Shown: piece after piece, positions 8,561 through 54,213 of the stretch
How the letters are laid out: the number at the start of each line of letters is the position of its first letter
Position numbering within the stretch: the first letter of the stretch is position 1
Origin: Actinomycetes bacterium
GTDB lineage: Bacteria; Actinomycetota; Acidimicrobiia; Acidimicrobiales; RAAP-2
Length of the DNA: 57,052 bases
Assembly: GCA_021810205.1 (NCBI GenBank)
Contig: JAJZJC010000007.1
Span: 1-57,052, forward strand
Reading direction: 5' to 3'
Made by a program: the position numbers and the translations under genes
The notes under the pieces: model-generated
The model's input: only the letters and a program-made list of their open reading frames with translations
What the model was told of the DNA's origin: nothing
Database searches by the model: none

Positions 8561-8620
8561 CGGGGTAGTGGACGGGCGCCGGGGGTAGTGGACGGGCATC
8601 GGGGGTAGTGGACGGGCATG
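8561..8620. repeat. 20-bp x 3 tandem repeat ending on a start codon
   Basis: Three consecutive 20-bp units at 8561-8580, 8581-8600 and 8601-8620, built on GGGGTAGTGGACGGGC. The last four bases differ: CGCC, CATC and CATG. Only the third copy ends in ATG, which is the start codon of the small ORF at 8618. The array lies between the oxidoreductase and that ORF. Confidence 0.95.
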
Positions 8621-8923
8621 GCCATCCCCACTGGGCAGCGCGGCGCTTGTGGCCCCGGCGGGCCGACTCACCGCCGACGGGGCCGCCGGTTCGAGTTGAA
8701 CCCGGGATGCTTCGGGCGCGCGGCGCTCTTGGGCGGCGGCGCAGCACTTGGCGGAGCAGCGCTCGGCGGACTTGGGCTCTGGGCCGCATGGCGGGTGTGG
8801 CGTGCACGGGGCATCGCACGGACCACGCGTGCGATCTGGCACGGCTGGCGCCGTGTGCGAACCGTGCTCACGGGAGGCGCCCGCCACGCGACGCGCGCCC
8901 GCCAGGCAGCCCGTCGTCGCTGA
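8618..8923 (+). CDS. Possible small membrane protein, 101 aa
   Basis: A 101-residue frame beginning at the ATG that closes the 20-bp tandem array. The N-terminal 30 residues are polar and basic. A single Ala/Gly-rich hydrophobic segment (AALLGGGAALGGAALGGLGL) follows, then a strongly basic tail rich in Arg. I recognise no family. The frame could be a GC-driven open frame: codon use is plausible but the amino-acid composition is skewed to Arg, Ala and Gly. It is kept because it has one clear membrane segment and fills an otherwise empty interval. Confidence 0.4.
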   Translation: MAIPTGQRGACGPGGPTHRRRGRRFELNPGCFGRAALLGGGAALGGAALGGLGLWAAWRVWRARGIARTTRAIWHGWRRVRTVLTGGARHATRARQAARRR

Positions 8924-8993
8924 CACACTGCGCCGGCGCGTTGCCCCAGCGACCCGCGTCGTCTCGAGCCACCAGCTCGTCGCCTGCCACCGC

Positions 8994-9975
8994 TCAGTCC
9001 CCGTCACTGCTCTGGAGCACCACGTCAGGAGTCGCAAGCGGCGCCTCGTCGCCATTGGGAGTGAACGCCTCGATGCGCGCGACATACGCGCGGGACTCGG
9101 TCATGCGCACCGTTGCGGGCTGCCGCAGCTTGCGTCTTTGCGGAACATGCTGAGGGTCCTTGCAGATGCGATACGTGATGAGGGCGATGATCACCGGCAC
9201 CCCGACCGTCGCGGCACGGAACGCCCACACCGTCTGGTTCAGTGCCAGATGGAAGAACTTCGAGATGACGTCGTCACCGCTTGCCATGAACAGGACGAAG
9301 TGGAAGGTGAAGAACCCGGCGCCGATCGCCGTGTGGATCGGACGGTCCCGTGGCGCGACGAGGAGATGGTGTGTCACCTGGTTGCGCATGAACCATCCTT
9401 CGAGCCACGGCCACGCCATCATGAAGAGGAACTCGCCCAGCGGGAAGAGGACGACAGGGCCGAAGACCTCCCACGGCACCGTGTGACCCCAACCGGTCCA
9501 CTCCCAGTTCGGCGTGATGCGCAGTGCCCCCTCGGAAATGAGCAGCACGTGGGCAATGTAGAAGCGGTGGATCCACAAGGTCCCGGGGTACTGGCCCCCC
9601 CAGATGAACGATGCCAAGTACGACCCGACGAAGGGGATCGACTCGCAGATCGAGTAGGCGATCCGGTTCCCCGAGCCAGCCAGGTTGTCGTTGATCATCA
9701 CGTAGCCGAAGTAACCATTGAAGATCGCGAGCAACAGCATCGTCAGCCCGATCACCCAGTTGGTCTCGCGCGGGCGGCGGTAGGCGCTCGTGAAGAAGAT
9801 CCGGCAGCTTCGTGGCGCTCTTCGCGCGCCCGAACCGCTTGTCGAGCCCGGCGACCGGCTTGCGCGTGACCTGGCGAGGGGTGCCGACGCGCGCTTCGAC
9901 CTAGTACGTCGCGCGCTCGATCGGCCGAGGTCGATGCCGTTCGATCTCTTTACGGACGAACCGCTCCAGTGTCAT
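8994..9975 (-). pseudogene. Cytochrome b (QcrB-type) gene with in-frame stop and internal deletion
   Basis: The region encodes pieces of an actinobacterial cytochrome b in order but not in one frame. An ATG at 9975 overlaps the NrfD stop (ATGA) and opens MTLERFVRKEIERH, ending at TAG 9901-9903. The same frame then continues with QcrB-like N-terminal sequence (VGTPRQVTRKPVAGLDKRFG) and breaks at about 9796. There the sequence jumps straight to RIFFTSAYRRPRETNW, which in intact proteins lies roughly 100 residues later; the first helices and part of the haem ligands are missing and the frame changes. The remainder, open from GTG 9755, carries NGYFGYVMINDNLAG, WIHRFYIAHVLL and several membrane segments. 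It probably cannot make a working bc complex subunit unless the assembly is wrong here. Confidence 0.75.
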
Positions 9976-11051
9976 CCCCGCGCGGTGACCTCCGCACGAC
10001 GTGCCCGCTGTGGTGCGATGGTGTACACAGGGTCGCGAGCGGACTGGACACCCGCACGGAAGACCCCGAACCGTTCGAAGGCAGACCCGAGGAGCAGTGC
10101 CGCGCCGGCTGCGATGCCCGCACGCCGGTCCCGGCGGGCCAAAGAGGACGTGAGCGAGCCCAACGCCGTGAGCCCCACGGCCAATTTCATATAGATGCCG
10201 GCCCGCCCTTGGTGATAGGGCTCAGCCGCCATGCCCATCTCGCGCTCCATGAGCTTGGTCAGCGCGATCTCGGCGGGGCCAGCGACAAGGGCCAGGCGTC
10301 GCACCGGCTCGCACTCGGTCGGCGGTGCGGTGAGCAGTCCCCATCCAGCAGCGGCGCTCGCGCCCGAGGCGACGAACACGTACGGCATCGTGCGGTGACC
10401 CCCATGCCAGGAGGGCACCGCGGTGTTGGCGATCAGGGCGGCGGTGTACGCCGAGACCCCGGGGCCGAGCACGGCGGCGGCGGCCGTGGCAATCGCCCCG
10501 CCGGTCGGCGCGAGCCCCGTCACCTCGCTCGCCGCCGACGCCATCGCGGCCGGCGCGAAGCCGGCCAAGAGCCACGATCCGATGTTCATGGGCGACGTCA
10601 CCTTGAGCACGCGCAGCATGTTCAAGAAGCGGGTCGGACGTCCCAGATCATGCACGAGTGCGGCGAGCGAGAGGCCTACAGCACCGGCAGCACCGAGCTT
10701 CGCGCCACGGGCCAGCGCCCGTCTGCCCGTCACGTGCGCCCCTGCGCCAACTGCTGCCGACGCACCGGCAAGCCCTCCCAAGAAGAGATACCCCGCGATG
10801 TCCCTGGCCGACCAGACGGGCTCGTTCAGCACGGGAAGGCCGTAGTAGGAGGCGGTGGCCGCGCCCGCGGACGACGCGATGGCTCGGGGTCCCCGCCCGT
10901 TTCCCTGTCCTCGAGGAGCCCAAGGATCCCGGACGCGCACCGCGGTCTCGGCATTGGAGGACGAGGCACCCACGTGGACGCCCGTCGTGGCCCCCCGCCC
11001 GGGCCGGACACCCTCTTGGCCTTCGCGGCCAACGTTGCTTTGGTTGCTCAC
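9972..11051 (-). CDS. NrfD/PsrC-family membrane subunit
   Basis: A 359-residue protein with an N-terminal polar region of about 80 residues and then about eight hydrophobic segments, including WSARDIAGYLFLGGLAGASA and the conserved ALVHDLGRPTRFLNMLRV motif of NrfD/PsrC quinol-interacting subunits. It should anchor the Fe-S subunit and exchange electrons with the quinone pool. GTG 11051 is chosen because AAGGAGG lies five bases upstream and the codon shares one base with the stop of the Fe-S gene, indicating translational coupling. Its own stop overlaps an ATG of the damaged cytochrome b locus. Homologues occur in formate dehydrogenase, polysulfide reductase and alternative complex III systems; FdhD nearby favours the first. 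Confidence 0.88.
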   Translation of the reverse strand: MSNQSNVGREGQEGVRPGRGATTGVHVGASSSNAETAVRVRDPWAPRGQGNGRGPRAIASSAGAATASYYGLPVLNEPVWSARDIAGYLFLGGLAGASAAVGAGAHVTGRRALARGAKLGAAGAVGLSLAALVHDLGRPTRFLNMLRVLKVTSPMNIGSWLLAGFAPAAMASAASEVTGLAPTGGAIATAAAAVLGPGVSAYTAALIANTAVPSWHGGHRTMPYVFVASGASAAAGWGLLTAPPTECEPVRRLALVAGPAEIALTKLMEREMGMAAEPYHQGRAGIYMKLAVGLTALGSLTSSLARRDRRAGIAAGAALLLGSAFERFGVFRAGVQSARDPVYTIAPQRARRAEVTARG

Positions 11052-12001
11052 TACGACCTCCTTGCGACGAAGACCGCGGCCACCGTTGCCGACAGCGCCG
11101 CAGCGGCCAGGCCCACGCGTGCCCACAGCGCAGGCAGCTCCCGAGTGCCCACGACAGGGTCCGGTGGAAGCCCATAGACCTCGGGCTCGTCGAGCAGCAA
11201 GAAGAACGCCCCGTCTCCCCCGACCCCGTCGTCGGGATCCCTTCCGTAGAGCCGCGCGTCGGACACGCCGGCCGAGTGCAGCACCGCGAGCCGCTGGTCC
11301 GCGCGTTCACGCAGCTCGTCGAGCACACCGAACTGGATCGAGTCAGTGGGACACGCTTTTGCGCACGCAGGCTCTTGACCGACCTTCAGCCGGTCGTAGC
11401 ACAGCGTGCACTTCCAGACCCTGCCGTCGTCCTCCCGCTTGTCGATGACACCGTAGGGACAGGCGGGGACGCAGTATCCGCACCCGTTGCAGATGTCCTC
11501 TTGGACGACGACCGTGCCGAACTCGGTGCGGAAGATGGCCCCCGTGGGGCAGACGTCGAGGCAGGCAGCCTCGGTGCAGTGCTTGCACACATCCGACGCC
11601 ATGAGCCACCGGAAGCCGACGGCACCGCTGGCGTCTCCTTCGTCGTGCGACTCGAGCCCGGTCCGGGCGACCGCGCCGGTGACCTGCCTCGCGAGCGGCT
11701 TGCGCTGCTCGATGAACGCGACGTGACGCCAGGTGTCGGCGCCGAGTCCTTGGGTGTTGTCGTAGGACATCCCGGTGAAGACGAGGCCATCCTCGGGGAC
11801 GCGGTTCCACTCCTTGCACGCCACCTCGCACGCCTTGCAGCCGATGCACACAGAGGTGTCGGTGAAGAAGCCGACGCGGGGCGGAGGGTCCACGTAGCCG
11901 CGCGCCTCCGCTGCGTCTTGACCGTTGCTGAGCGGTCCAGTCCTGAGTCGCCGGTCCGCCACAGGATCGAGGATTTGGCCAGGCGTGGTGTCGGTGCTCA
12001 T
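11051..12001 (-). CDS. 4Fe-4S ferredoxin-type electron transfer subunit (formate dehydrogenase beta-like)
   Basis: A 316-residue protein with four cysteine clusters spaced as in FdnH/FdhB-type subunits: CIGCKACEVACKEWN (from residue 52), CKHCTEAACLDVCPTG, CNGCGYCVPACPYG and CTLCYDRL with CAKACPTDS. Together they can bind four 4Fe-4S clusters. A hydrophobic C-terminal segment, LWARVGLAAAALSATVAAVF, would anchor it in the membrane beside the NrfD subunit. It would carry electrons from a catalytic molybdoenzyme to the quinone-reactive partner. The start at ATG 12001 is the last of five ATGs in a 14-bp tandem array. No catalytic subunit lies upstream, where one would be expected. Confidence 0.92.
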   Translation of the reverse strand: MSTDTTPGQILDPVADRRLRTGPLSNGQDAAEARGYVDPPPRVGFFTDTSVCIGCKACEVACKEWNRVPEDGLVFTGMSYDNTQGLGADTWRHVAFIEQRKPLARQVTGAVARTGLESHDEGDASGAVGFRWLMASDVCKHCTEAACLDVCPTGAIFRTEFGTVVVQEDICNGCGYCVPACPYGVIDKREDDGRVWKCTLCYDRLKVGQEPACAKACPTDSIQFGVLDELRERADQRLAVLHSAGVSDARLYGRDPDDGVGGDGAFFLLLDEPEVYGLPPDPVVGTRELPALWARVGLAAAALSATVAAVFVARRS

Positions 12002-12068
12002 CTCTCGGTGCTCATCTCTCGGTGCTCATCTCTCGGTGCTCATCTCTCGGTGCTCATCTCTCGGTGCT
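11999..12068 (-). repeat. 14-bp tandem array carrying five start codons
   Basis: On the minus strand the unit ATGAGCACCGAGAG is repeated. ATGs fall at 12057, 12043, 12029, 12015 and 12001, preceded by a partial copy. Each of the four upstream ATGs reads ATG AGC ACC GAG AGA TGA (MSTER-stop), and its TGA overlaps the next ATG. The last ATG starts the Fe-S subunit. The hemerythrin-domain frame also stops inside the array, at 12040-12042. Confidence 0.97.
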
Positions 12069-13044
12069 CCCGCATGCAGATCCCCGAGCGGTGCAGCCAC
12101 GGCGGTCGGTCGGACGATCGTCCGCGCGGTCCCGCTCGTGGTCGAGGGCGGCGACGGGGGGCCGTCGCGCGGAGCGCCGCGGCACCCGACGGGGCGTGCG
12201 GGCGCAACCTCGTGGGCGACCTGTCCAACATGTCGACAAGGCGTCCTCCGAGCTGCCGGCGGTTCTCCTCGCAGAGCTGTTCACGCACCTCGGTGCACAC
12301 GGCGTCTTCGAACGCGACGTGCGTGCGGACGAAGCCGGAGATCTCGTCGACCAGTTCGTCGAAGCGGTCGCCTCCCTCGGCAAGGCCTCGGAGCTGATCG
12401 AGCAACCGCTTACCCTCCCTTTCTTGCTCACGCGCCATGGCGGCCATGCTCGAGCCGCCGTCGATGGTGTCCGCTACGGCCGGCCACAAGACGCGCTCCT
12501 CGGCGTCCTCGTGCACTGACAAGCGCTGGACGACGAGGTCCGCCAGCGGCTCTCGACGAGAGAGGTCACCGGGTCCTGCGCCGTCGCGGATGTGAGGGAG
12601 CGACGAGAGCTCTTGGAGGACAGCGTGGATCTCGTTGTGCTCTCTGGCGAGAACCGAGAAGACATCGGGCGAGGCGTCTTCCAGCAGTACGTCACCGCCT
12701 TCCTGTCGCTTTTGCAACTTGCGCTGCTCTTTTCCGCTGGCCATCGACGCGGCGACCATCTGGCCGTCCGACGCCGCCATGGCCTTCATCCACTCGTCCA
12801 CGATGTCCGAGGACGCCGGGGAGGACGCCGGGGAGGACGCCGGCGGGTTCGGCAAGTGCTGAGTGCTCGAGCACAGAAGACCGGGACGCCGGCGGTCCTC
12901 CGTCGAAAGCACGTCGCTGCCGTCTGCGGGCACACCGGCCGCGATCAGGAACGCGAGGCCGGGGGACAGTCCCATGGCGAGGCCAATCTCCTCGTAGCTC
13001 ATCCCTCGAAGAGCCAGATCGAGCACTTGGTTCCTTCTCACCAT
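12040..13044 (-). CDS. Hemerythrin (HHE) domain protein
   Basis: A protein of about 334 residues. The N-terminal 30 residues (MVRRNQVLDLALRGMSYEEI) look like a helix-turn-helix-like segment. A low-complexity linker (PASSPASSPASS) follows, encoded by a 12-bp x 3 repeat at 12809-12844, and then a hemerythrin-like domain. The domain has His/acidic residues in the expected places: REHNEIHAVLQEL, VHEDAEERVLWPAV and THVAFEDAV. Such domains bind a di-iron centre and sense or carry oxygen, NO or iron. The last 60 residues are Arg/Pro-rich, run into the 14-bp array and are probably not native. The start is uncertain: ATG 13044 or GTG 13041; a well-placed ribosome site instead precedes a six-codon mini-ORF (MTTRTW) whose TGA overlaps the GTG. 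Confidence 0.7.
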   Translation of the reverse strand: MVRRNQVLDLALRGMSYEEIGLAMGLSPGLAFLIAAGVPADGSDVLSTEDRRRPGLLCSSTQHLPNPPASSPASSPASSDIVDEWMKAMAASDGQMVAASMASGKEQRKLQKRQEGGDVLLEDASPDVFSVLAREHNEIHAVLQELSSLPHIRDGAGPGDLSRREPLADLVVQRLSVHEDAEERVLWPAVADTIDGGSSMAAMAREQEREGKRLLDQLRGLAEGGDRFDELVDEISGFVRTHVAFEDAVCTEVREQLCEENRRQLGGRLVDMLDRSPTRLRPHAPSGAAALRATAPRRRPRPRAGPRGRSSDRPPWLHRSGICMREHREMSTER

Positions 13045-13078
13045 GTCCTCGTCGTCATGTTCGTCTCCTGGTGGCACC

Positions 13079-13141
13079 GCTCTTCCCATGCTCTTCCCAT
13101 GCTCTTCCCATGCATGCTCTTCCCATGCATGCTCTTCCCAT
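13079..13141 (-). repeat. 11-bp tandem repeat upstream of the hemerythrin gene
   Basis: Five copies of an 11-bp core (GCTCTTCCCAT on the plus strand) at 13079, 13090, 13101, 13116 and 13131. The last three are separated by GCAT, giving mixed 11- and 15-bp periods. On the minus strand each unit supplies an ATG about 35-95 bp upstream of the hemerythrin start. The rest of 13045-13260 holds no gene I can support. Confidence 0.95.
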
Positions 13142-13260
13142 GCGCCGTGCACGGCGGACGAGAGCGGTGCGGCGGCTTGTCGCATACCCGGGTGTGGCGA
13201 CGCCAATCCTCTGTGCGATGGCAGGACCCGCGCCTGGCAGCGGTGCGGGGAACACGAATC

Positions 13261-13923
13261 ATGATCGCGTCGCCGGTGCTCGACTACCAGTTCCACGGCA
13301 CCTACTTCATCGTCGCCTACTTCATCGTCGCCCACTTCCACTACACGCTGTTCGCCGGCAGCGTCTTCGGAGCCTTCGCGGGCGTCTATTACTGGTTGCC
13401 GAAGTCAACCGCCGTGATGCTCGACGAGAAGGTCGGCAAGGTCAATTTCTGGCTCATGGTCGTGGGGACCAACGTGACGTTCGGTCCCATGTTCGCCCAG
13501 GGGTACTTGGGCCTTCCCCGACGCGTCGCGACCTACTTCCCGAACCTCGGGGTCGACCCGCTCACCCTCACCTCGAGCATCGGCGCCGGCATCATTGCCC
13601 TCGGCGTCGGGGTCTTCGTCTTCAACGTCGCGAAGTCGCTCATCGTGCGTGTCCCTGCGGCCGACGACGCATGGGGAGTCGGCCAGGGCATCGAGTGGGC
13701 CACCTCGTCCCCGCCACCCATGTTCAACTTCGACGAGCTCCACTCGGTGCCGCGAGTGAAGAGCTACGCGCCGTTGCTCACCTTGCGCTGGGAGGCAGAG
13801 GACGCCGAAGCGCAAGAGGCTGCGGCACGTTTTGCCGCGACCGCCGGCCGGGGCGCGCTCGGCACCGTCGATGGCGACGAGGGCGCCGTCGGGCCGGGCG
13901 GCGACGGGGCGACGTCACCGTGA
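13261..13923 (+). pseudogene. C-terminal fragment of haem-copper oxidase subunit I (CtaD-like)
   Basis: About 220 codons corresponding to the last third of cytochrome c oxidase subunit I. It begins MIASPVLDYQFHGTYF, which in intact proteins lies near helix IX-X. It includes the haem-ligand region VAHFHYTLFAGSVFGAFAGV, then YYWLPKSTAVML and later helices, ending in an acidic Gly-rich tail. The first 300 or so residues, including the CuB ligands, are absent: the upstream frame is open but unrelated and repeat-rich. A perfect 15-bp duplication (13303-13332) adds YFIVA to the family-conserved TYFIVAHFHY. The stop overlaps the next GTG (GTGA). This fragment cannot form an active site. Confidence 0.85.
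13303..13332 (+). repeat. 15-bp x 2 in-frame duplication in the oxidase fragment
   Basis: TACTTCATCGTCGCC occurs at 13303-13317 and again at 13318-13332 with no mismatch, duplicating five residues (YFIVA) immediately before the conserved HFHY histidines. Confidence 0.95.
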
Positions 13924-14359: not shown

Positions 14360-15321
14360 TCGTGACACCGGCGCCGCTGACACGGGCGCCGCTGGCACCG
14401 CCGTTGGCACCGCCGCTGTCGAGCAAGAGATCGATCCCCACTCCCCGACGGGTGTCGTCGACGACCCACTGGACGAGAACTGCGCCGAGGACCGTACCGC
14501 TCGCGACCATGCTCGAGATCCACAAGACGACCCCCGCGGTGTGCGTCGCTGCGAGCGCGGTCCCGGCGATCATCGGCCGAGGCCACACGGCGAGCGCGAT
14601 GCCCACCGCCGTCTCGAGCGGCGCCCCTGCAAGGAGGGCAGCGAAGCGAAAGCCAAAGCTGCGCGGCACACCGTTTCCCGTCCGGACCCCGAACCCCGAG
14701 AAGAACAGGAGGCCGACGGCGACGAACCAGCAGTCGACGACGTCGAGCAGCCCGGGCGCACGAACGGAGTCAGCGAGGAGTGGCGTCAGGAAGAAGGCCG
14801 CCATGGAGGCGTAGTAGAGCGGCGTAGTAGAGCGGCGTAGTAGAGCGGCGTAGTAGAGCGGCGTAGTAGAGCGGCGTAGTAGAGCGGACGGACGGGCGGG
14901 TCGTCGCTTCGGGCGCACGGCGGCGCGGCGCCCGCCACGCGCCGACTGGCAGACCCACGACGAGCAGCGGCGGCGCTGCCATCATCAACAAGACGTGTTG
15001 CACCACGAGGACCGACGGTCTGCTCTGGTAACGAGCAAGCCCGGAACCCACGGCGGTGAAGACGAGCAACGCTCCGCCCACGAACGCGGCGCTGCGCCAT
15101 ACCGGCCAGTGGACCACCGACCCGTCGCACTCGCCCTTCCCCTCACCAGCGCGCCGGCGGGAGCCGACGCAGTACGTCGAGACGGCCACAAGATACGTCG
15201 AGACCACCACGAGCAGGACGCCGTCGGCGCCCAGGGCGAACGGCGACATGAGCGGCCAAGTGAGCACGATGACGAACGACAGCGGCCCCGACGGCGCGTC
15301 GAGGACGCCGATGAGGTGCAT
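14313..15321 (-). pseudogene. ctaG: CtaG-like cytochrome c oxidase assembly protein, frame broken in a 13-bp array
   Basis: The N-terminal half (from ATG 15321, MHLIGVLDAPSGPLSF) has membrane segments and the family motif VVQHVLLMMAAPPLLVVGLP. It then enters the 13-bp array in a frame that ends soon after at 14770. The C-terminal half is open in another frame from ATG 14804, MAAFFLTPLLADSVRAPGLL, then CWFVAVGLLFFSGFG and three more hydrophobic segments, all typical of the caa3-type assembly factor CtaG. The two halves differ by one base of frame. Removing one or four 13-bp units (leaving five or two) joins them exactly. CtaG is involved in copper delivery to subunit I; here the oxidase genes themselves are also damaged. 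Confidence 0.75.
14811..14888 (-). repeat. 13-bp x 6 tandem array inside ctaG
   Basis: Six copies of GTAGTAGAGCGGC (plus-strand reading) at 14811, 14824, 14837, 14850, 14863 and 14876, with the last base of the sixth changed. As 13 is not a multiple of three, copy number sets the reading frame. Read in the N-terminal frame, three units encode the 13-residue cycle RSTTPLYYAALLR. Confidence 0.97.
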
Positions 15322-15821: not shown

Positions 15822-16748
15822 ATGACGAAGCATCCCGTAGACCCAGTGAGCAGCGCCACCATCGCAGGTCGCGTGACCCTGGACCCCATGCCGCCAGCGA
15901 GCGGAGGCGGGACGGTGGACCGCGCCGCGCCGGTCGAGCAGGTGATGGTGACTGCCGTGGGCCCACGGACGCGTCGAGAACGTCCCGACCGGGTGGCAGG
16001 CGAAGAACCCCTCGAGATCCGGCTCGCGGGCCCCGGCACCGAGCCCGAGCCCGTTGCCGTCACCATGCGAACGCCGGGTCACGACTTCGAGCTCGCCGTC
16101 GGCTTCCTGCTCGCAGAGGGATTGCTCGTGGACCAGCGCGACGTGCGCACCGTGAAGTACTGCGAGCTCCCGGAGGGTGATCTGCAGCGATTCAACGTCG
16201 TGACGGTCACCGCGGCGCGCCCGGTGGCCGTCGGGGACCGGCGACGCCGAGTCACGGTGAGCGCCAGCTGCGGTGTATGCGGCACGGCAAGTCTGGACGA
16301 ATTGAAGGACCGCTGCCCCGCAGTCCCGACCGGTGAGCCGATCAGCGTGGGAGTGCTCACGAACCTTCCCGACAAGCTGCGCCGGCGTCAGCCGGTGTTC
16401 GAGCAGACGGGAGGGCTCCACGCGGCAGGGCTGTTCGACACGAGCGGGCGGATGCTCATGGTCCGTGAGGACATCGGCCGGCACAATGCGCTCGACAAGC
16501 TCGTCGGCTGGGCGGCACTCCAGCGGCAGCTCCCCTTGTCGCACGCCGTCCTCGTGGTGTCGGGCCGCGTCAGCTTCGAGATCGTCCAGAAGGCGGCCGT
16601 GGCAGGTATCCCGACGGTCATCGCCGTCTCGGCACCTTCGAGCCTGGCGGTGGCGACGGCTCGCTCGCTCGACATGACGCTCGCCTGCTTCGTGCGAGAC
16701 GCGCACGCCAACATCTACGCCGCGCCGTGGCGGGTGACCGACACATGA
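15822..16748 (+). CDS. fdhD: Formate dehydrogenase accessory sulfurtransferase FdhD
   Basis: A 308-residue FdhD, which transfers sulfur from a cysteine desulfurase to the molybdenum cofactor of formate dehydrogenase before its insertion. The catalytic CxxC pair is in ASCGVCGTAS (Cys150, Cys153). Other family landmarks are PGHDFELAVGFLLAEGL, QTGGLHAAGLF, REDIGRHNALDKLVG and SGRVSFEIVQKAAVAGIP. The N-terminal 45 residues are variable. Start is ATG 15822. The stop TGA overlaps the first moaC ATG (ATGA), so the two are translationally coupled. Its presence implies a molybdenum or tungsten formate dehydrogenase in the genome; the Fe-S and NrfD subunits 4 kb away could belong to it. Confidence 0.96.
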   Translation: MTKHPVDPVSSATIAGRVTLDPMPPASGGGTVDRAAPVEQVMVTAVGPRTRRERPDRVAGEEPLEIRLAGPGTEPEPVAVTMRTPGHDFELAVGFLLAEGLLVDQRDVRTVKYCELPEGDLQRFNVVTVTAARPVAVGDRRRRVTVSASCGVCGTASLDELKDRCPAVPTGEPISVGVLTNLPDKLRRRQPVFEQTGGLHAAGLFDTSGRMLMVREDIGRHNALDKLVGWAALQRQLPLSHAVLVVSGRVSFEIVQKAAVAGIPTVIAVSAPSSLAVATARSLDMTLACFVRDAHANIYAAPWRVTDT

Positions 16749-16774
16749 GCCGGGGCGACATGAGCCGGGGCGAC
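16745..16774 (+). repeat. 15-bp x 2 start-codon repeat at moaC
   Basis: ATGAGCCGGGGCGAC occurs at 16745-16759 and 16760-16774, directly followed by ATGAGC of the third start. Each unit contains an in-frame ATG and a GGGGCGA stretch that could act as a weak ribosome site for the next one. Confidence 0.97.
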
Positions 16775-17260
16775 ATGAGCGATGCGCCACTCACCCATGT
16801 CGACGACCACGGTCGCGCCCGGATGGTGGACGTCACGGGCAAGGCGGTGACGCAGCGTCGCGCCCTCGCGCGATGCATAGTGCGCACCACCGACACTGCC
16901 GCGAAGTCCCTGCTCGCCGACGAAGACGCCGTCGCGTTCGCGCGTGCGGCAGGGATGCTGGGAGCGAACAGGGCACCCGAGCTGGTACCTCTGTGCCATC
17001 CGCTCCCGCTCGACGAGGTGAGCATCCGCGTGCACGTCGGCCAAGGGTCGATCGAGATCCTGGCCGAGACCGCGGTGGTGGCCCGAACGGGCGTGGAGAT
17101 CGAGGCGCTGACCGCATGCGGCATCACCGCGCTGAACCTCGTGATGGTATTGCTCCCGCACGACCCGACAGCCCGCGTCGACACACTCGCGCTATGGGAG
17201 AAGTCGGGCGGACGTTCCGGGACATGGCGCCGTGGCGAGGTGCCGGCGAGCGAGGGATAG
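16745..17260 (+). CDS. moaC: Cyclic pyranopterin monophosphate synthase MoaC
   Basis: MoaC converts the product of MoaA (3',8-cyclo-7,8-dihydro-GTP) to cyclic pyranopterin monophosphate in molybdenum cofactor synthesis. Family sequence starts LTHVDDHGRARMVDVTGKAV and includes GANRAPELVPLCHPLPLDEV and TGVEIEALTACGITALNLVM. From the third ATG (16775) the protein has 161 residues, the usual MoaC length. From the first ATG (16745), which overlaps the fdhD stop, it has 171. The extra ten residues are two copies of MSRGD from a 15-bp tandem repeat, so three in-frame starts are available. I give the longest form, coupled to fdhD; 16775 is probably ancestral. Confidence 0.95.
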   Translation: MSRGDMSRGDMSDAPLTHVDDHGRARMVDVTGKAVTQRRALARCIVRTTDTAAKSLLADEDAVAFARAAGMLGANRAPELVPLCHPLPLDEVSIRVHVGQGSIEILAETAVVARTGVEIEALTACGITALNLVMVLLPHDPTARVDTLALWEKSGGRSGTWRRGEVPASEG

Positions 17261-19152: not shown

Positions 19153-20258
19153 CGCCGCCTCGCTCGGAGCCACGGGTTCGTCGCCATCCGCTCGCTGCTC
19201 GACGCCTCGGCGTCGCGGATCGTGCGGCCGGTGTAGTTCATGAAGACGTCGTCGAGCGTCGGCCGGGCGATGCTCACCGACTTGATGGCGACACCGAGCT
19301 CTGCGAAGAGGCGGGGGACGAACGCCTCCCCTTGGGCAACGTAGAAGGCGACGGCACCCTCGCTCATGGTCGCCGAAAGCGCGAACCGGTTCGAGAGCGC
19401 GTCGATGGCGGCCGCGTCGTCGTCCGTGGAGATCTGCACCCTGTCGAGGCCGATGCCTTGCTTGAGGCGTTCGGGCGTGTCCTCGACGACGATCCTCCCC
19501 TCGTCGATGATGGCGATCCGGTCGCAGTGCTCCGCCTCGTCCATGTAGTGCGTGGTCAGGAACATCGTGATGGCCTCTCGCTGGCGCAGCTCGTCTATGT
19601 AGCCCCAGATGTGCGACCGCGTCTGGGGATCGAGCCCGACGGTGGGCTCGTCGAGGAAGAGGACGCGGGGGGAGTGCAGGAGCCCCCGAGCGATCTCGAG
19701 CCGGCGCTTCATGCCGCCCGAGAAGGTGCGGACCAGCCCGTCCCGGCGCTCGAAGAGCCCGACCATGTGGAGCACGTCGGCGATGCGCTCGGCGGTCTGG
19801 TGGCGCGGCACGCCGTAGAGCTCTGCGTGGAAGCGGAGGTTCTCCTGCGCGGTCAGGTAGTCGTCGAGCGTGGTGTCTTGGAACACGAGTCCGATGCGCT
19901 TGCGCACCTCGGCCCGTTCGGTGACGACGTCGTAGCCGGCCACTCGAGCGGCGCCCGACGTGGGCTGCAAGAGGGTGCAGAGCATGGAGATCGTGGTGGA
20001 CTTCCCGGCGCCGTTCGGCCCGAGGAACCCGAAGGTCTCCCCTTGGGGCACCTCGAAGCTCACGCCCCGCACCGCCTCGACGTCGCCGAACCGGCGCACC
20101 AGATCCCGGACCGAGATCGCTGGTTCCGCACGTGGAGAAGCGTCCACGCCAGCCTCCTCGGCGCCCACAGCTGGGGTGGGCGACTTGTTCGGGACAGCGC
20201 CCGCGGCGCGACGTGCGCAGGGCAATTGGCTCACCGCGGGAGCGTACCGCTGGCTCAC
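19149..20258 (-). CDS. ABC transporter ATP-binding protein (DrrA-like)
   Basis: A 369-residue ATPase. Walker A is GPNGAGKSTT, the Q-loop is in GLVFQDTTLDDYL, the signature is FSGGMKRRLEIARGLL, and Walker B with the D-loop is VLFLDEPTVGLDPQT. The switch His lies in TTHYMDEAEHCDRI. The C-terminal DrrA-type extension has the typical PTLDDVFMNYTGR end. The first 45 residues are variable. Two in-frame GTG-AGC starts (20258 and 20234) exist because a 24-bp segment is perfectly duplicated; no clear ribosome site precedes either. It works with the downstream permease. Confidence 0.93.
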   Translation of the reverse strand: MSQRYAPAVSQLPCARRAAGAVPNKSPTPAVGAEEAGVDASPRAEPAISVRDLVRRFGDVEAVRGVSFEVPQGETFGFLGPNGAGKSTTISMLCTLLQPTSGAARVAGYDVVTERAEVRKRIGLVFQDTTLDDYLTAQENLRFHAELYGVPRHQTAERIADVLHMVGLFERRDGLVRTFSGGMKRRLEIARGLLHSPRVLFLDEPTVGLDPQTRSHIWGYIDELRQREAITMFLTTHYMDEAEHCDRIAIIDEGRIVVEDTPERLKQGIGLDRVQISTDDDAAAIDALSNRFALSATMSEGAVAFYVAQGEAFVPRLFAELGVAIKSVSIARPTLDDVFMNYTGRTIRDAEASSSERMATNPWLRARRR

Positions 20259-20274
20259 CGCGGGAGCGTACCGC
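20227..20274 (-). repeat. 24-bp x 2 duplication of the ABC ATPase start region
   Basis: A perfect 24-bp unit occupies 20227-20250 and 20251-20274. On the minus strand each copy contains GCGGTGAGCCA, that is, the GTG start plus the next codons, so start and N-terminal residues are duplicated in frame. Confidence 0.97.
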
Positions 20275-27964: not shown

Positions 27965-29086
27965 TCAGTGGATCACACCCCCCGTGGAGCTCACGAGCGC
28001 GAGGACCGCCACCAGGTTGAACGACGCGTGCGTCACCATGTTCATCCCGAGGCGTCCGGTCTTGTAGCTGATCAGCGCCAAGAGCATGCCGAAGGCGGCA
28101 AGACCAGCGAACTGATAAAGCTCCCAGTGCGCGAGCCCGAAGAGCACGCCGTCGACGACCACTGCGGCGGTCAGCCCGGCCGCGCGCCGACGCGTCGCTC
28201 CTCCTTCACCTGGCGTGAAGAGGCGCGCAAGCGCTTTGAGGCCGAGCCCCCGGAACAAGATCTCTTCGAAGAACGGGGCACCGCACACCGTGAGGATCGC
28301 GATCAATGCATAGCCCCACCCGTGCGACGCCCCGACGAGCTTGGTCGTCGGGGCTGTGAAGTGCTTCAAGTGCTCGATGAACGGCGAGTACAGCGCGTCG
28401 AGCACGAACTGGGCACCTACCCCGATCGGCACTCCCACCAGGTCGACAGGGCGGAACCGCACCCCGAGGTCGGCGAGAAACCGGCCCGTCCCCCGTGCGC
28501 GGCTGGCGACCCACGGCCCAGCGAAGAAGCCGACCCAGAGTCCGACGAGCGACGTGGCGACGTACCACTCGGGAGGCGCCGCCATCGTCGCGAACCGGTG
28601 GAGCTCGGCGCTGTCGCCAGCAAGCGCTGCCGCGATGGCGACGAAGGCCGTCGCCACGATCTGGCCGACGACGAAGCCGACGAGTCCCATCACGAGCCAG
28701 AACCACGCGCTCGACCTCGTGGCCGGTGGTGCGCCGGGGACGTCGAGGAAACGGGCGCCGTTCGACATCGAGGGGGAGCGCGACGGACGGGTGCCGTTCG
28801 AGCCCGAGAAGGTGGCGGCGTACTGCGATGTCCACGGCCGTGTGCTCCATCGCGGGGCTGCACGGCCCGGTGGCGGGTAGCCACCCCGTGGCGGGTAGCC
28901 GCCCGATGGCGGCAGGTCGCCCGACTGAGAGGGAACAGGCGGTGGCCAGGGACCCGGCGGTGAGGCGTACGGCTCTGGCCGGCTGCCGTGCGCGTCGCCG
29001 GCGCCAGAGCCCTCAGAAGCACGGGGTCGAGGCATGGCGTCCTCTCCGTCGGGTGGTGCGCTGTCTCCGTCGGGCGGTGCGCTCAC
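27965..29086 (-). CDS. CPBP family intramembrane metalloprotease
   Basis: A 373-residue protein with a long Pro/Gly-rich N-terminus (about 120 residues) and an eight-helix CPBP/CAAX-protease domain. Motif 1 is EEILFRGLGLKAL (about residue 275), motif 2 is FGLAHWELYQFAG and motif 3 is THASFNLVA; together they give the Glu/His/Asn zinc site. Bacterial members process or shield small peptides or have unknown targets. The N-terminal stretch PPSGGYPPRGGYPPPG comes from imperfect nucleotide repeats at about 28868-28918. The first codons (SAPPDGD twice) come from a 21-bp duplication at the start codon. ATG 29035 is an alternative start that would skip the duplication. Confidence 0.85.
   Translation of the reverse strand: MSAPPDGDSAPPDGEDAMPRPRASEGSGAGDAHGSRPEPYASPPGPWPPPVPSQSGDLPPSGGYPPRGGYPPPGRAAPRWSTRPWTSQYAATFSGSNGTRPSRSPSMSNGARFLDVPGAPPATRSSAWFWLVMGLVGFVVGQIVATAFVAIAAALAGDSAELHRFATMAAPPEWYVATSLVGLWVGFFAGPWVASRARGTGRFLADLGVRFRPVDLVGVPIGVGAQFVLDALYSPFIEHLKHFTAPTTKLVGASHGWGYALIAILTVCGAPFFEEILFRGLGLKALARLFTPGEGGATRRRAAGLTAAVVVDGVLFGLAHWELYQFAGLAAFGMLLALISYKTGRLGMNMVTHASFNLVAVLALVSSTGGVIH
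29042..29083 (-). repeat. 21-bp x 2 duplication right after the CPBP start codon
   Basis: Two adjacent 21-bp units, 29063-29083 and 29042-29062, built on AGCGCACC-CCCGACGGAGA with two differing bases. They begin at codon 2 of the GTG 29086 start and end seven bases before the alternative ATG 29035. Confidence 0.95.
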
Positions 29087-29334: not shown

Positions 29335-31785
<2,451 letters not shown>

Positions 31786-46195: not shown

Positions 46196-46211
46196 CCCGA
46201 GGTCACGTCCA

Positions 46212-47143
46212 TCAGCCCGACGTGGAAGTGGTGCTCTTCGTCGTGGTCGAAGTCGTGGAGGACGGGGCGGTGGTCGAGGTGGAGGACGGGGCGGTGGTCG
46301 AGGTGGAGGACGGGGCGGTGGTCGAGGTGGAGGTCGTCGGGGTGATCGGCGACGTCGGCGTCGTGCTCGAAGAGCCCGCCGCCGCATCGAGCAGCGCGGT
46401 CACAACGCCACCGTTCGGCTTGGGAAGCGTGGTCCCGGACGGCACGAAGCCGACCGTGATGAGCTGGTCATCGGTGAAACGGAGTGTGGCCGGATTTCCG
46501 GAATAGCTGACCGGTTTCTGCTTGGCAGCGAACGCGCTCGGCCAGTACGTGACCTGGACCGTCGCCTTCTTGCCGGCGTACTTGGTGCCCTTCGCGCAGG
46601 TGGTGCCACTTCGGTAGACCGCCGACGTCGCGGCGGTCGTCTTGGTCGTCGACTTGGGGGTCTTGGTCTTCGACTTGGGGGTCTTGGTCGACGTCGGCGC
46701 CGACGCGCCGGCCGCGCTCGTCGGAAGGACGATCTCTGTAGAGCTCACCGTGAGCCCCTTGTAGGAGGAGACGAACTTTCCGAACGTGGCATTCGCTCCA
46801 GCGACGCTTGTCGTCTTGGGCGCGATGGTGATCACGCCATTACCCGAGGTGTAGAAGGACTGAGTGGTCGTGTCGACGATGTCCGCAGGCAAGACCTTCT
46901 GGGTCCACAGATGTCGAAGACCGCCGCCGCATACCACGGCGAGCCGTTCTTGGTCGGCGCGGTGGTGTTCTGGGCCGGACCGGTCTGGTACTCGTAGCGC
47001 GCGAACGCCACCGAGGCCAGGCCGAGCAGGACGATGACCACCAGCGCCGCGTACCAATTGACCGGCGCCTGACCGCGATAGGTACGCCCGCCGCCGGTCG
47101 CCGCGGCGCGTGCAACCCATTTTCCCGTCGAGCTTCTCGGCAT
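46212..47143 (-). pseudogene. Membrane-anchored surface protein with Thr/Ser-rich tail, frameshifted
   Basis: The N-terminal part (ATG 47143, MPRSSTGKWVARAAAT) has one membrane segment (WYAALVVIVLLGLASVAFAR) and then PAQNTTAPTKNGSPWYAAAV. At about 46915, after FDIC, the coding sense passes to another frame: WTQKVLPADIVDTTTQSFYT, and continues to the end at 46212 with a domain including VQVTYWPSAFAAKQ and LRFTDDQLITVGFVPSG. A one- or few-base indel explains it. The tail is built of TSTTAPSS repeats. The layout (short inside part, one helix, outside domain) is that of actinobacterial surface proteins of unknown function. It may be a true gene with a sequencing error, since both halves look well conserved. 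Confidence 0.65.
46252..46332 (-). repeat. 24-bp tandem repeat coding TSTTAPSS
   Basis: About three units of 24 bp, core GAGGACGGGGCGGTGGTC on the plus strand; full units at 46276-46299 and 46300-46323 with partial flanking copies. In the minus frame each gives TSTTAPSS. A second coding repeat of about 21 bp (46641-46690, giving KTPKS) lies in the same gene. Confidence 0.93.
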
Positions 47144-47220: not shown

Positions 47221-47260
47221 GGCGGTTCGCGCCCTTCGGCGGCGGTTCGCGCCCTTCGGC
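47221..47260. repeat. 20-bp x 2 intergenic tandem repeat
   Basis: A perfect 20-bp unit, GGCGGTTCGCGCCCTTCGGC, at 47221-47240 and 47241-47260. It lies between the frameshifted surface protein and the BTAD gene, 78 bp upstream of the surface-protein start. No gene is supported in 47144-47315. Confidence 0.95.
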
Positions 47261-47315
47261 GGCAAGATGCCTCTTGCGCACGGAACCAGGGCGGTGCACA
47301 CGAGGCACTGGGATC

Positions 47316-50134: not shown

Positions 50135-50784
50135 CTAGGATCCTCGTGGCAGAGTGTCAACCGTTTCGCGGCAGAGTGCCAACCGTTTCGGCACATCACA
50201 CGGGGCGTATTGCTCGTCGCCCGTCATGCTCGCCGGGTCCCCCGGCTGATGGTCCCGGCGGGAGGCGACGTGGGCGCGCTGTTGGCACGGCGGCGCCGGG
50301 CGATGCCCAGGTGAACGGTCGAGCGCGCCAGTCACCTGGTGGCGCGCTGCTACCACGTCTCCTCGTCGCCGAGTGAGCTGCGCCTGCAGGTCGCTCGGGT
50401 CCGAACCTCCGAGGGCATGGTGCGTGGCCAGCCGTTCGAGGCGGCCCTCGGAGTCGCTGCCGAACAGCCGGCCGACCAGCATCGCATGCCTTTCGGCGAG
50501 ATCGCTGGTGGGCTGATCGCGGGTCGGGCCTTGGGTCGTCGGCGAGAAGGCGCCATCGCCGAGCGACGGGCGACCACCTCGTCGAGCGCCTCGATGTACC
50601 GGTCCGTCAAGGCGGCCCAGCGGTCGGGCAGCGTGAGCAGACGCGCAAGGAAGGCAGCGGGCGAGGTCTCCTGCTCGAGTACGCGGCCGGCGCCCGTCCG
50701 GGTCCACCCGTACGCGGACTCCCACCACACGAGCTGAGGCGCGGCCGATCGAGCGAACAGCGAAGCCGGCCCGGTCAGCCACAC
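50135..50784 (-). pseudogene. Possible frameshifted gene, unrecognised
   Basis: From GTG 50784 one frame gives a protein-like start (MWLTGPASLFARSAAPQLVW, then EQETSPAAFLARLLTLPDRW and ALTDRYIEALDEVVARRS). Near 50548 the coding character moves to another frame (TRDQPTSDLAERHAMLVGRL, LERLATHHALGGSDPSDLQA, RRRGDVVAARHQVTGALDR) and runs to 50135. If joined, the product would be about 215 residues, mainly helical. I recognise no family. The second half may instead be a chance frame. It follows the secreted-protein gene at 50794 by nine bases. Confidence 0.35.
50148..50191. repeat. 22-bp x 2 tandem repeat
   Basis: Two adjacent 22-bp units (50148-50169 and 50170-50191) with core GGCAGAGTG-CAACCGTTTCG and two differing bases. 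They lie at the 3' end of the possible frameshifted gene, about 120 bp upstream of the 50026 start. Confidence 0.92.
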
Positions 50785-50793
50785 GCGACCAGG

Positions 50794-51723: not shown

Positions 51724-52116
51724 TCAGCCGACGATCGCCTCGATCCGCTTGAGGAGCTTGTCTTCGACCTCGAAGTTCCACGCCGTCTCGGCGACGTCGA
51801 TGACGAGGAACAGATCGGAGATGAGCAACGTCTCCACGACGGCCACTCCGAGATGCTCCAACCACTTGCCGATGCCCACTCGAACCGTGAAGTCGTCCGG
51901 GCCGCCCGAGATCATGATGGTGAGCGCCCGGTCGGCGTCGACGACCCCTCGGAGGAATCCCCCCTTCTTTGCCTGCAGCACCGTTCCCTGGTCGCTCGGA
52001 GCCGAGGACTGCACCGAGAAGCCATCGGACTTCAGGTACTCCTCGATCCTTTGCTGCAGAGCGCTCAGGTCCGTTCCCTTGCCCTGGAAGTGCAGTGACT
52101 TGTCACCAAGGGTCAT
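51724..52116 (-). CDS. Small uncharacterised protein, 130 aa
   Basis: Starts at ATG 52116 six bases after GAGGAGG. The sequence MTLGDKSLHFQGKGTDLSAL is followed by an amphipathic helix and beta-like strands (SSAPSDQGTVLQAKKGGFLR, ADRALTIMISGGPDDFTVRV, GIGKWLEHLGVAVVETLLIS), ending in VEDKLLKRIEAIVG. It looks like a compact cytoplasmic alpha/beta domain. Similar small domains occur beside membrane or zinc-ribbon proteins, but I cannot name the family. It is divergent from the fused ABC transporter gene, with 213 bp between the starts that could hold both promoters. Confidence 0.75.
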   Translation of the reverse strand: MTLGDKSLHFQGKGTDLSALQQRIEEYLKSDGFSVQSSAPSDQGTVLQAKKGGFLRGVVDADRALTIMISGGPDDFTVRVGIGKWLEHLGVAVVETLLISDLFLVIDVAETAWNFEVEDKLLKRIEAIVG

Positions 52117-52329
52117 TCGGCCTCCTCATGGCGTGATGTGACGTCTGTCGGCATGCGATCGCCGACCGACCTGGACGCTAGGTGGCCCAGGAGCCGAAGG
52201 GGTGGCGCGGCCGGGGAGCACGCGTCGCTTGACCGAGTACTTACCGATCGACCGCGCGGTTTTCTGCGAGCTCCGGCAGTATCCTCGACATCAAGCCGCG
52301 ATCCACGCCGCTGTCGGGAGACTTCGCAG

Positions 52330-54213
52330 TTGTCCACTCTTTCGATCGAAGCAGCCGGTGCGGCCAGCCCCGACCCCGACCTGCTGCGCCCGCTTGCCTT
52401 GTGCTTTCGCAGTGTCACGCACCGCTACGGCACCAAGACGGCTCTCGACCGATTGAACCTGGACGTCCGGCAAGGCGAGGTGCTCGCCCTGCTCGGTCCC
52501 AACGGCGCCGGGAAGTCGACGACCATCTCGGTGCTTCTCGGCCTCATCCGGCCACAGGAAGGTGCCGTCGAGGTCCTCGGTTCGGACCCGAGCCAGGCCG
52601 TCACGGACGGCCGCGTCGGCGCCATGCTGCAATCGGGTTCCGCGGTCGGCCTGCCCCCCGGCGTTCGCGTCGGCCAAGCGCTCCACCTGGTGCGGCGCCT
52701 GTACCATCGCCCCGCGCCGTTGGACAAGGTGATCGAGCAGGCGAAGATTCGCAGCCTCCTGCACGAACGGACCGATCGGCTTTCAGGCGGACAGGCACAG
52801 CGAGTGCGGTTCGCGATCGCGATCGCCGGAGACCCTGAAGTGGTCTTCCTCGACGAGCCGACGTCGGCGATGGACGTCGAGTCCCGACAGGCTTTCTGGC
52901 GAATGATGCGCGAGTTCGGCGACGAGGGCCGCACCGTGGTCTTCGCCACGCATCACTTGGCCGAGGCCGATGAGATCGCGGATCGAGTCGTCGTGCTGAA
53001 CCACGGCAGAGTGGTCGCCGACGGTCCAGGCGCCACGCTGAAGGCGGCGGTGGCCACTCGGCGGCTGCGCTTCGTCTCGGACCACTTGGATCGCGCGTTG
53101 CTATCGGAGCTCGACGGCGTCACGGAGGTAGAGGTGCGCGGCACCAGCGTGTCGATCGACTCGCTCGACGCCGATGCGACCACTCGGGACCTCGTCACGC
53201 GCGACGTGCCGTTCCGTGACCTCGAGGTCACCTGCGCCGGGCTGGAGCAGGCGTTCGTAGCATTGACCTGCAAGCCGGCCAACCCATCGCCGGCCAACCC
53301 ATCGCCGGCCAACAGCGCGCCAGTGGCCGGCGCGCCACCCTCCCGCGCCGCGATCGAACCGGCAGCAGCGCAACCGCAAGAAGCGCCGCGCGCGCAAGAA
53401 GCACGGCCACCGATCGGCGCACCAGGCGCACGGCGCTCTCTCGGTCTTCGGCGTGAGCGGCTCGCGCCGCTTGTGGCTTTCGCCGGCTTCGAGGTGGGAA
53501 GGCTGTTGCGCAGCTGGAAGTTCCTCGCCATCACCATCGGATTCCCGGTGATCTTCTACCTCCTCTTCTTGGGCGACCACACCGCAGGCGCCGTCGTAGA
53601 CGGCGCGGTGCCATGGCGCGTCTACCTCATGGTGTCGATGTGCTCGTTCGGCGCGCTGGTCGCCGCGTTGAACGCAGGTGGTACCCGGCTGTCCATGGAG
53701 CGCGCGTCGGGCTGGGCGCGCCAGCTCCGCGTCACCCCGATTCCGGCCTGGTCGTACGTGGGCACCAAGATCTTCGCCAGCATGCTCGTCGTCCTCCCGG
53801 TCATCGCCCTCGTCGAAGTCGTGGGGGCAGGCTTCGGCGACGTGCGCCTCGGTGCAGCCGCATGGGTCGGCCTCACCCTCCTCATGTGGGCAAGCTCCCT
53901 GCCCTTCGCCGTCCTCGGAGTCTTCATCGGCTTCCTCGTCTCGACCGAGGCTGCCTTCCCGGTCGTCACTGGGCTCATGTTCGTCCTCGGGTACTTCGGC
54001 GGCCTTTTCACCCCGGTCGACCGCATGCCGGGCGCGCTCCAGGTCGTCGCACACCTGTTACCGAGCTACCACAACGACGCACTCGGCCTGGCCGCCCTCG
54101 ACGGGCACACGCTCGCGTTCTCGCACTGGGCGGTGCTGATCGGCTACGCCGCGGTCCTCGGACTGGCGATCGCGTGGAAGCACCGGGCCCAAGAGGCCCG
54201 CGGCATCGCCTGA
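52330..54213 (+). CDS. Fused ABC transporter: ATP-binding domain plus ABC-2 permease
   Basis: About 627 residues in one chain. Residues 20-310 are an ABC ATPase: Walker A GPNGAGKSTT, Q-loop GAMLQSGSAVGLP, signature RLSGGQAQRVRFAIAI, Walker B VVFLDEPTSAMDVES and switch His in VVFATHHLAEADEI. A 70-residue Pro/Ala linker follows, part of it encoded by a 15-bp tandem repeat. Residues 385-625 are an ABC-2 permease with six membrane segments (KFLAITIGFPVIFYLLFLG; later YFGGLFTPVDRMPGALQVVA). Most homologues are two genes. Start is TTG 52330, with GGGAG ten bases upstream; a longer frame from 52138 looks non-coding. Export cargo is unknown. Confidence 0.85.
   Translation: MSTLSIEAAGAASPDPDLLRPLALCFRSVTHRYGTKTALDRLNLDVRQGEVLALLGPNGAGKSTTISVLLGLIRPQEGAVEVLGSDPSQAVTDGRVGAMLQSGSAVGLPPGVRVGQALHLVRRLYHRPAPLDKVIEQAKIRSLLHERTDRLSGGQAQRVRFAIAIAGDPEVVFLDEPTSAMDVESRQAFWRMMREFGDEGRTVVFATHHLAEADEIADRVVVLNHGRVVADGPGATLKAAVATRRLRFVSDHLDRALLSELDGVTEVEVRGTSVSIDSLDADATTRDLVTRDVPFRDLEVTCAGLEQAFVALTCKPANPSPANPSPANSAPVAGAPPSRAAIEPAAAQPQEAPRAQEARPPIGAPGARRSLGLRRERLAPLVAFAGFEVGRLLRSWKFLAITIGFPVIFYLLFLGDHTAGAVVDGAVPWRVYLMVSMCSFGALVAALNAGGTRLSMERASGWARQLRVTPIPAWSYVGTKIFASMLVVLPVIALVEVVGAGFGDVRLGAAAWVGLTLLMWASSLPFAVLGVFIGFLVSTEAAFPVVTGLMFVLGYFGGLFTPVDRMPGALQVVAHLLPSYHNDALGLAALDGHTLAFSHWAVLIGYAAVLGLAIAWKHRAQEARGIA
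53275..53315 (+). repeat. 15-bp tandem repeat in the ABC fusion linker
   Basis: The unit CCGGCCAACCCATCG occurs twice and partly a third time, in frame, encoding PANPS repeats at the junction of the ATPase and permease parts. Confidence 0.94.

What the first reader, a model, noticed from the sequence alone, without database searches (positions are those of the whole stretch)
8561..53315. Window-wide family of short tandem duplications, several placed exactly on start codons
At least fourteen arrays with units of 11-24 bp occur: 8561 (20 bp x 3), 11999 (14 x 5), 12809 (12 x 3), 13079 (11), 13303 (15 x 2), 14811 (13 x 6), 16745 (15 x 2), 20227 (24 x 2), 29042 (21 x 2), 31590 (18), 46252 (24), 47221 (20 x 2), 50148 (22 x 2), 53275 (15). 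Sequences differ, so they are not one mobile repeat; the process is shared. Four or five duplicate the start codon or the first codons of a gene, and a few more lie in linkers or just upstream of genes. Inference: local slippage or error-prone repair creates copy-number variants that tune translation start choice, N-terminal length or frame. This density is unusual for a bacterial chromosome.
Basis: partly seen in the sequence, partly recalled or inferred. Interest (0 to 1): 0.85.

Follow-up and report, generated by a model that had tools for sequence, protein, structure and literature searches.

The report
Slippage-made short tandem repeats, genus-wide
A little-known group of actinobacteria carries two to three times more short, tandemly duplicated DNA repeats than other actinobacteria; they sit where a duplication does little harm rather than targeting gene starts, and they look like copying errors filtered by selection.

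Summary
The arrays are real: all 14 listed sites are tandem repeats (12 of 14 with exact copies), against 0.15-0.3 arrays per shuffled window. The density belongs to the genome and its genus, not to the window: 82 arrays in 524 kb sampled (15.6 per 100 kb), genus mates 12.6 pooled, versus 5.2 in 80 actinobacterial loci. The start-codon claim fails: 11 of 82 arrays lie within 40 bp of a called start, 8.4 expected, P 0.22. Stop codons, not starts, are straddled in excess (11 versus 2.4 expected; starts 1 versus 2.4), and other actinobacteria show the same placement. Inside genes 29 of 34 units are multiples of three, outside 18 of 48. The two window arrays that include a gene's start codon both sit on a stop/start (ATGA) junction, where the first copy keeps the stop and the last keeps a start. 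Flanking homology and private arrays at orthologous sites (PolA linkers) point to direct-repeat-primed slippage plus purifying selection. One array lies between two halves of ctaG that are in different frames. Why this lineage has more is unsolved.

The parts
11991..12069 (-). 14-bp unit x 5.6 on an ATGA junction: first copy (transcription order) holds the stop of the hemerythrin-domain gene (12040), last copy holds the start of the FDH-beta-like 4Fe-4S gene (12001)
   Evidence: TIGR01582 matched below its cut-off; no array at the corresponding gene start of genus mate G002, whose upstream neighbour differs
16743..16780 (+). 15-bp unit x 2.5 on the ATGA overlap of the fdhD stop (16746-16748) and the first moaC start (16745); the three ATGs are in one frame and any could serve
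   Evidence: PF01967; FdhD above cut-off; MoaC NCBIfam models below theirs; no array at the G002 junction
14808..14887 (-). 13-bp unit x 6.15 inside ctaG; the two parts of the CtaG domain lie in different frames on either side
   Evidence: PF09678 positions 14-117 in window:14770-15714 and 104-235 in window:14313-14918
8562..8619 (.). 20-bp unit x 2.9 (94%), between called genes
12809..12843 (-). 12-bp unit x 2.9, in the reading frame of the hemerythrin-domain protein
13079..13143 (-). compound array, 11-bp x 3.2 running into 15-bp x 3.1, about 35 bp upstream of the inferred start (13044) of the hemerythrin-domain gene
   Evidence: start inferred from frame by eye
13301..13338 (+). 15-bp unit x 2.5, in frame in a COX1 remnant (13261-13923)
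20227..20274 (.). 24-bp unit x 2, between called genes, upstream of an ABC transporter ATPase gene; no array in the matching G002 interval
29043..29083 (-). 21-bp unit x 2 (95%), upstream of or in the N-terminal extension of a CAAX-protease-like ORF
31589..31719 (+). 18-bp unit, about 7 copies with indels, in the C-terminal tail of an FtsH-like protease
46255..46333 (-). 24-bp unit x 3.3, in or upstream of the N-terminal extension ahead of a nucleotidyl transferase domain
47221..47263 (.). 20-bp unit x 2.15, between called genes
50144..50190 (.). 22-bp unit x 2.1 (92%)
53274..53313 (+). 15-bp unit x 2.7, in frame between the ATPase and membrane parts of a fused ABC transporter
4502..4525 (.). 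12-bp unit x 2, between called genes; no array in the matching G002 interval
46639..46690 (-). 21-bp unit x 2.5 (93%), in an ORF without Pfam match

Best explanation
These are ordinary bacterial minisatellites (VNTR-type arrays) made one by one by replication slippage between short direct repeats (ABA becomes ABABA, then gains copies), in a genus where such events arise or persist two to three times more often than in other actinobacteria. Purifying selection decides where they are seen: inside genes mostly in-frame units in linkers and tails survive; between genes and across stop codons any unit length survives; on ATGA stop/start junctions a duplication does little harm because the first copy keeps the upstream stop and the last keeps a downstream start. 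Shown: excess, frame rule, placement, flanking homology, private arrays at orthologous sites. Inferred: slippage as the act, neutrality of the survivors, and a raised mutation rate in the lineage.
For: 14 exact rows versus 0.15-0.3 in Markov sequences. Own genome 82 in 524 kb versus 76 in 1.47 Mb of 80 actinobacterial loci, ratio 3.0, P 1e-11; genus mates 109 in 866 kb, ratio 2.4 over the same loci. Frame rule: inside 29 of 34 units divisible by three, outside 18 of 48, Fisher P 1.5e-5. Placement alike in own genome and in the 80 loci: inside 0.52/0.53, stop-straddling 4.7/4.1, start-straddling 0.4/0.5, intergenic 3.0/3.6 times expectation. Flanking homology of 4 bp or more in 48% of 73 simple arrays against 3.8% of random duplications; 43% of the 47 with clean edges. 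Short direct repeats of 6-9 bp, the substrate, are fewer in own genome than in the 80 loci, yet runs of 15 or more are about four times as many. Of six PolA sequences of the genus, five carry repeats of different units in the linkers; one intergenic site has a 13-bp array here, a shorter degenerate form in G005 and a 14-bp array in G001.
Against: 15 of 47 clean arrays have no flanking homology at all, so a second route may contribute. Own genome is not significantly above its genus mates (ratio 1.24, P 0.14), and against all family stretches including the array-rich G053 the ratio falls to 2.1. Against the other family members the 6-9 bp substrate is slightly higher here (1122 versus 1022 runs of 6, 46 versus 35 runs of 9, per 100 kb). 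No repair gene loss was found that explains the lineage effect. Gene starts come from my own simple caller and are imprecise. Only about 17% of the genome was sampled, not at random. No reads were available, so change within a population is not shown.
Confidence: 0.77

Rival explanations
1. Contingency-locus device: copy number at gene starts tunes translation start choice, N-terminal length or frame.
For: Two window arrays include a start codon (11991, 16743) and one 13-bp array separates two frames of ctaG, so individual arrays could change expression.
Against: No enrichment at starts in the sampled genome (11 versus 8.4); start-straddling is at or below expectation in three data sets while stop-straddling is 2.6-4.7 times above; the three window arrays whose flanks align to G002 (4502, 16743, 20227) are not present there.
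Confidence: 0.07
2. Lineage relaxed selection or genome decay: arrays are not made faster but are removed less.
For: The stretch 9-15.7 kb, rich in arrays, holds partial genes (COX1 C-terminal part only, cytochrome b part, split ctaG).
Against: The in-gene depletion and frame rule are as strict here as in the 80 actinobacterial loci (inside ratio 0.52 versus 0.53; non-multiples 5 of 34 versus 3 of 33).
Confidence: 0.12
3. Assembly artefact of a metagenome-assembled genome.
For: The genome is fragmented (177 contigs, 72% complete); arrays are over-represented at contig ends (6 of 55 against 1.6 expected).
Against: Artefacts would not obey reading frame (29 of 34 in-gene units divisible by three); many other draft genomes of the family are array-poor (13 arrays in 272 kb); the longest of the 82 arrays is 103 bases.
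Confidence: 0.04

Closest known systems
Bacterial minisatellites / VNTR loci used for MLVA typing
   Same: short identical units in tandem, unrelated sequences at different loci, copy number differing between relatives
   Different: units here are mostly 10-24 bp and the density is two to three times that of other actinobacteria sampled; population variation could not be tested
Direct-repeat-mediated insertions of yeast rad27/FEN1 mutants (ABA to ABABA)
   Same: duplicated units flanked by a few bases of homology; PMC5677150 (passages and section 11 read) gives unique part 1-91 bp, repeat 1-21 bp, with hot spots that change copy number
   Different: no loss of the flap-nuclease domain is seen in the own genome
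MIRU elements of mycobacteria
   Same: repeat at a start codon with a stop/start coupling, thought to have little effect on the gene (PMC12548453, one passage read)
   Different: MIRUs are described there as one repetitive, apparently mobile kind of sequence; the arrays here share no sequence
Phase-variable simple sequence repeats
   Same: the 13-bp unit in ctaG is not a multiple of three, so copy number changes the frame
   Different: no variation seen; unit longer than the 1-5 nt given for phase variation in the abstract of PMC4692102 (seen in the search listing only)

Membership tests
Minisatellite / VNTR | tandem identical units of about 10-100 bp | tested here: met
Minisatellite / VNTR | copy number differs between close relatives | tested here: met
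   one intergenic site in three species, PolA linkers; between species only
Minisatellite / VNTR | copy number differs within a population | not testable with these tools
   one genome per species, no reads
Direct-repeat-mediated slippage products (ABABA) | flanking homology beyond whole units | tested here: met
   48% of 73 with 4 bp or more against 3.8% null; 15 of 47 clean ones have none
rad27/FEN1-type mutator | loss of 5' flap nuclease | tested here: not met
   PF02739 matched in 41 of 41 genomes, own included at E 1e-52; in G003 and G011 only the weaker, stand-alone-like match; own polymerase part of PolA is off the contig
MIRU | one dispersed repeat sequence family | tested here: not met
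   consensus units differ between sites; no comparison with MIRU sequences was made
Start-codon contingency loci | enrichment at start codons | tested here: not met

The most novel reading that the evidence does not exclude
A heritable change in DNA replication or flap processing in this actinobacterial genus (and perhaps again in the genus of G053) raises the rate of short direct-repeat-primed tandem duplications several-fold without a matching change of substrate or selection, so that some hundreds of minisatellites per genome, a few of them frame-switching as in ctaG, supply continual small-scale variation; a natural counterpart of the yeast rad27 mutator.
Probability: 0.3. Interest if true: 0.65.

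Novelty: new member of a known kind. Interest (0 to 1): 0.37.

Why it matters
It replaces a start-site hypothesis by a simple rule that holds in all three data sets tested here: short tandem duplications are kept where the first copy preserves what lies upstream and the last copy what lies downstream, hence across stops and on ATGA junctions but rarely across starts. The genus offers species with high and low array density whose sampled DNA aligns at about 67-90% identity, so the cause of a natural excess of tandem duplications could be mapped.

Tried and rejected
Start-codon enrichment: tested and not found. Duplication without homology as the only route: rejected, because flanking homology is far above random, though a minority has none. 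More substrate because of composition: not supported against the 80 loci, where the substrate is commoner; against other family members it is slightly higher here, too little to explain the excess. Loss of the flap nuclease: PF02739 matched in 41 of 41 genomes (in G003 and G011 only a weaker match); own polA runs off a contig end and PF00476 is not found in the own assembly or in G011, no evidence of loss at 72% completeness. NucS loss: none of 25 genus and family genomes above the cut-off (G016 has a weak match below it), array-poor ones included, so not sufficient. A coding-frame scan of flanks in 210-base pieces was too noisy to use. My first gene model was poor and was retrained.

Biases: the grouping of the genus into G001, G006, G008, G009 against G002-G005 was made after seeing the densities. 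G006, G009 and G053 were sampled further because their first stretches were array-rich; the later stretches alone give 27.7, 23.6 and 12.5 per 100 kb. The 'other family' control leaves G053 out; with its first stretch the family has 17 in 292 kb (5.8), with all of it 29 in 388 kb (7.5). Own contigs were not drawn at random. A compound array counts as a non-multiple of three if any of its units is one.

Literature: ten searches. In the titles and abstract openings listed I saw no paper on short tandem duplications in this family (one search found 0 papers) or on their placement at stop codons; the lists are capped and most subscription papers are not in that library. Read: passages of PMC5677150 and its section 11, one passage of PMC12548453, passages of PMC2884548 (not used).
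Full report
OBSERVATION. Counting only exact arrays (unit 10-120 bp, at least two full copies) gives 14 rows or 13 merged loci in 57,052 bases; 20 third-order Markov sequences held 3 in all and 20 fifth-order ones held 6. The signal is real and far above chance.

THE GENUS, NOT THE WINDOW, IS UNUSUAL. The window is contig C140 of a draft genome (3.0 Mb, 177 contigs, 72% complete). One genus mate, G003, holds the record 'Acidimicrobiaceae bacterium isolate clean1680': a 10,000-base stretch of L034 lies in L133. I sampled 524,119 bases of the own genome in 37 stretches (contigs taken at steps by number, plus contigs known from searches; not random) and found 82 merged arrays, 15.6 per 100 kb; without the window 69 in 467 kb, 14.8. 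The window alone has 22.8, not significantly above the rest (P 0.15). Controls: 80 actinobacterial loci of up to 21 kb around a homologous gene, 76 arrays in 1.47 Mb, 5.2 per 100 kb; other family members 13 in 272 kb, 4.8 (without G053; 7.5 with it); order 7 in 129 kb, 5.4. Genus mates: G006 27.1, G009 23.0, G001 17.1, G008 14.6, G012 10.9, G004 9.0, G003 7.9 (38 kb), G005 7.2, G002 2.5 (40 kb); G007, G010 and G011 have samples of 20 kb or less (1, 0 and 0 arrays); G053 of another family genus 13.8. Pooled genus mates: 109 in 866 kb, 12.6, 2.4 times the 80 loci (P 2e-9) and not significantly below the own genome (P 0.14). Own genome against the 80 loci: ratio 3.0, P 1e-11.

START CODONS. With a simple self-trained gene caller, 11 of 82 arrays lie within 40 bp of a called start; random placement gives 8.4 with standard deviation 2.8, P 0.22. 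In that scoring arrays are depleted inside genes (30 against 61.6) and abundant between genes and at gene ends. Scoring only arrays that include the codon itself: stop 11 observed against 2.4 expected, start 1 against 2.4, both 1 against 0.9, between genes 35 against 11.5, inside 34 against 64.9. In genus plus family stretches held by then (44 arrays): stop 3 against 1.2, start 1 against 1.2, both 0 against 0.5. In the 80 actinobacterial loci (76 arrays): stop 7 against 1.7, start 1 against 1.9, both 0 against 0.6. Pooled, stops exceed starts 21 to 3 (P 0.0003). The caller missed one true start in the window (12001), so the start count is a lower bound; moving that array to 'both' leaves 20 to 3 (P 0.0005). 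The stop excess (4.7-fold) is not far from the intergenic one (3.0-fold), so it needs no special function.

READING FRAME. Inside genes 29 of 34 units are multiples of three; outside 18 of 48 are (Fisher P 1.5e-5). In the 80 loci it is 30 of 33 inside. Assembly errors would not respect frame, so the arrays are real and selection decides which survive. As the in-gene depletion is the same in own genome and in the 80 loci, weaker selection does not easily explain the excess.

ANATOMY IN THE WINDOW. Array 11991-12069 (14 bp x 5.6, minus strand) covers an ATGA junction: the first copy in reading order ends the hemerythrin-domain gene (stop at 12040), and the last copy starts a 4Fe-4S gene resembling formate dehydrogenase beta (ATG at 12001; TIGR01582 below its cut-off). 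Array 16743-16780 (15 bp x 2.5) covers the ATGA overlap of fdhD (above the NCBIfam cut-off) and moaC (PF01967); the three ATGs share a frame. In both, duplicating the junction leaves both proteins readable. Genus mate G002 has no array at either gene start; upstream of its FDH-beta-like gene the neighbour differs. Array 14808-14887 (13 bp x 6.15) lies within ctaG: the Pfam CtaG profile is matched at positions 14-117 in one frame and 104-235 in another, on either side of the array. Other window arrays lie in a protease tail, between the parts of a fused ABC transporter, in an N-terminal extension, or between genes.

HOW THEY ARISE. A duplication made between short direct repeats leaves part of a unit beyond the last whole copy. 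Of 73 simple arrays in the own genome 48% have 4 bp or more of such residue, against 3.8% for random cuts. Restricted to 47 with no decayed copy at the edges it is 43%, and 59% of 32 with units of 13 bp or more; in genus stretches plus G053 39% of 69; in the 80 loci 21% of 42. Against this, 15 of the 47 have none. The supply of 6-9 bp offset repeats is lower in this genome than in the 80 loci and slightly higher than in other family members, whereas runs of 15 bp or more are about four times as common as in either (29.6 against 7.7 and 6.9 per 100 kb). The form matches the ABA to ABABA insertions described for rad27 yeast (PMC5677150, passages and section 11).

RELATIVES. At an intergenic site (L180:9368) own genome has a 13-bp array, G005 (94% identical DNA over 837 columns) a shorter degenerate form, G001 a 14-bp array. 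Six PolA sequences of the genus (own and G001 partial) were compared: own has 15-bp units x 4.4 and x 2.5, G006 15 bp x 2.9, G009 12 bp x 2.4, G012 21 bp x 2.4 and 12 bp x 3.3, G001 30 bp x 2.9; G008 has no array with a unit of 10 bp or more and two copies. These arrays lie in the poorly conserved linkers and differ between species. Arrays are over-represented at contig ends of the own assembly (6 of 55, 1.6 expected, P 0.007), so the true density may be higher.

WHY THIS LINEAGE. Not solved. The 5' flap-nuclease family is matched in 41 of 41 genomes searched (G003 and G011 only by a weaker, stand-alone-like match). NucS is absent above cut-off from the 25 genus and family genomes searched, array-rich and array-poor alike. 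Incomplete drafts make absence calls weak.

VERDICT. A real, genus-level excess of ordinary minisatellites, most likely produced by direct-repeat-primed slippage and sorted by purifying selection; the start-codon pattern is a small-sample impression, better described as tolerance at gene junctions.

Noticed in passing
window 8994-15714: Partial or split respiratory genes side by side: cytochrome b matched only at 29-102 of 169, COX1 only at 326-435 of 436, ctaG in two frames, next to an FDH-beta-like and an NrfD-like gene; G002 gives no DNA alignment between window 11,932 and 15,513.
   Followed up: partly
G000-G024: NucS (PF01939) gave no match above cut-off in 25 genus and family genomes, but did in 9 of 16 from other families of the order.
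   Followed up: partly
L229, L234, L239, L246, L261, L264: PolA of this genus has long, partly repeat-built linkers that differ between species.
   Followed up: partly
L084:1-99, L185:1-124, L082:46-71, L095:15-63, L085:8353-8389, L099:14757-14827: Arrays sit at contig ends more often than expected (6 of 55 ends against 1.6), suggesting longer or polymorphic arrays that stop the assembly.
   Followed up: partly
L161 and L224-L228 (G053): A genome of another genus in the family also has a raised array density: 13.8 per 100 kb, 12.5 in the stretches fetched after the first; perhaps an independent gain.
   Followed up: no
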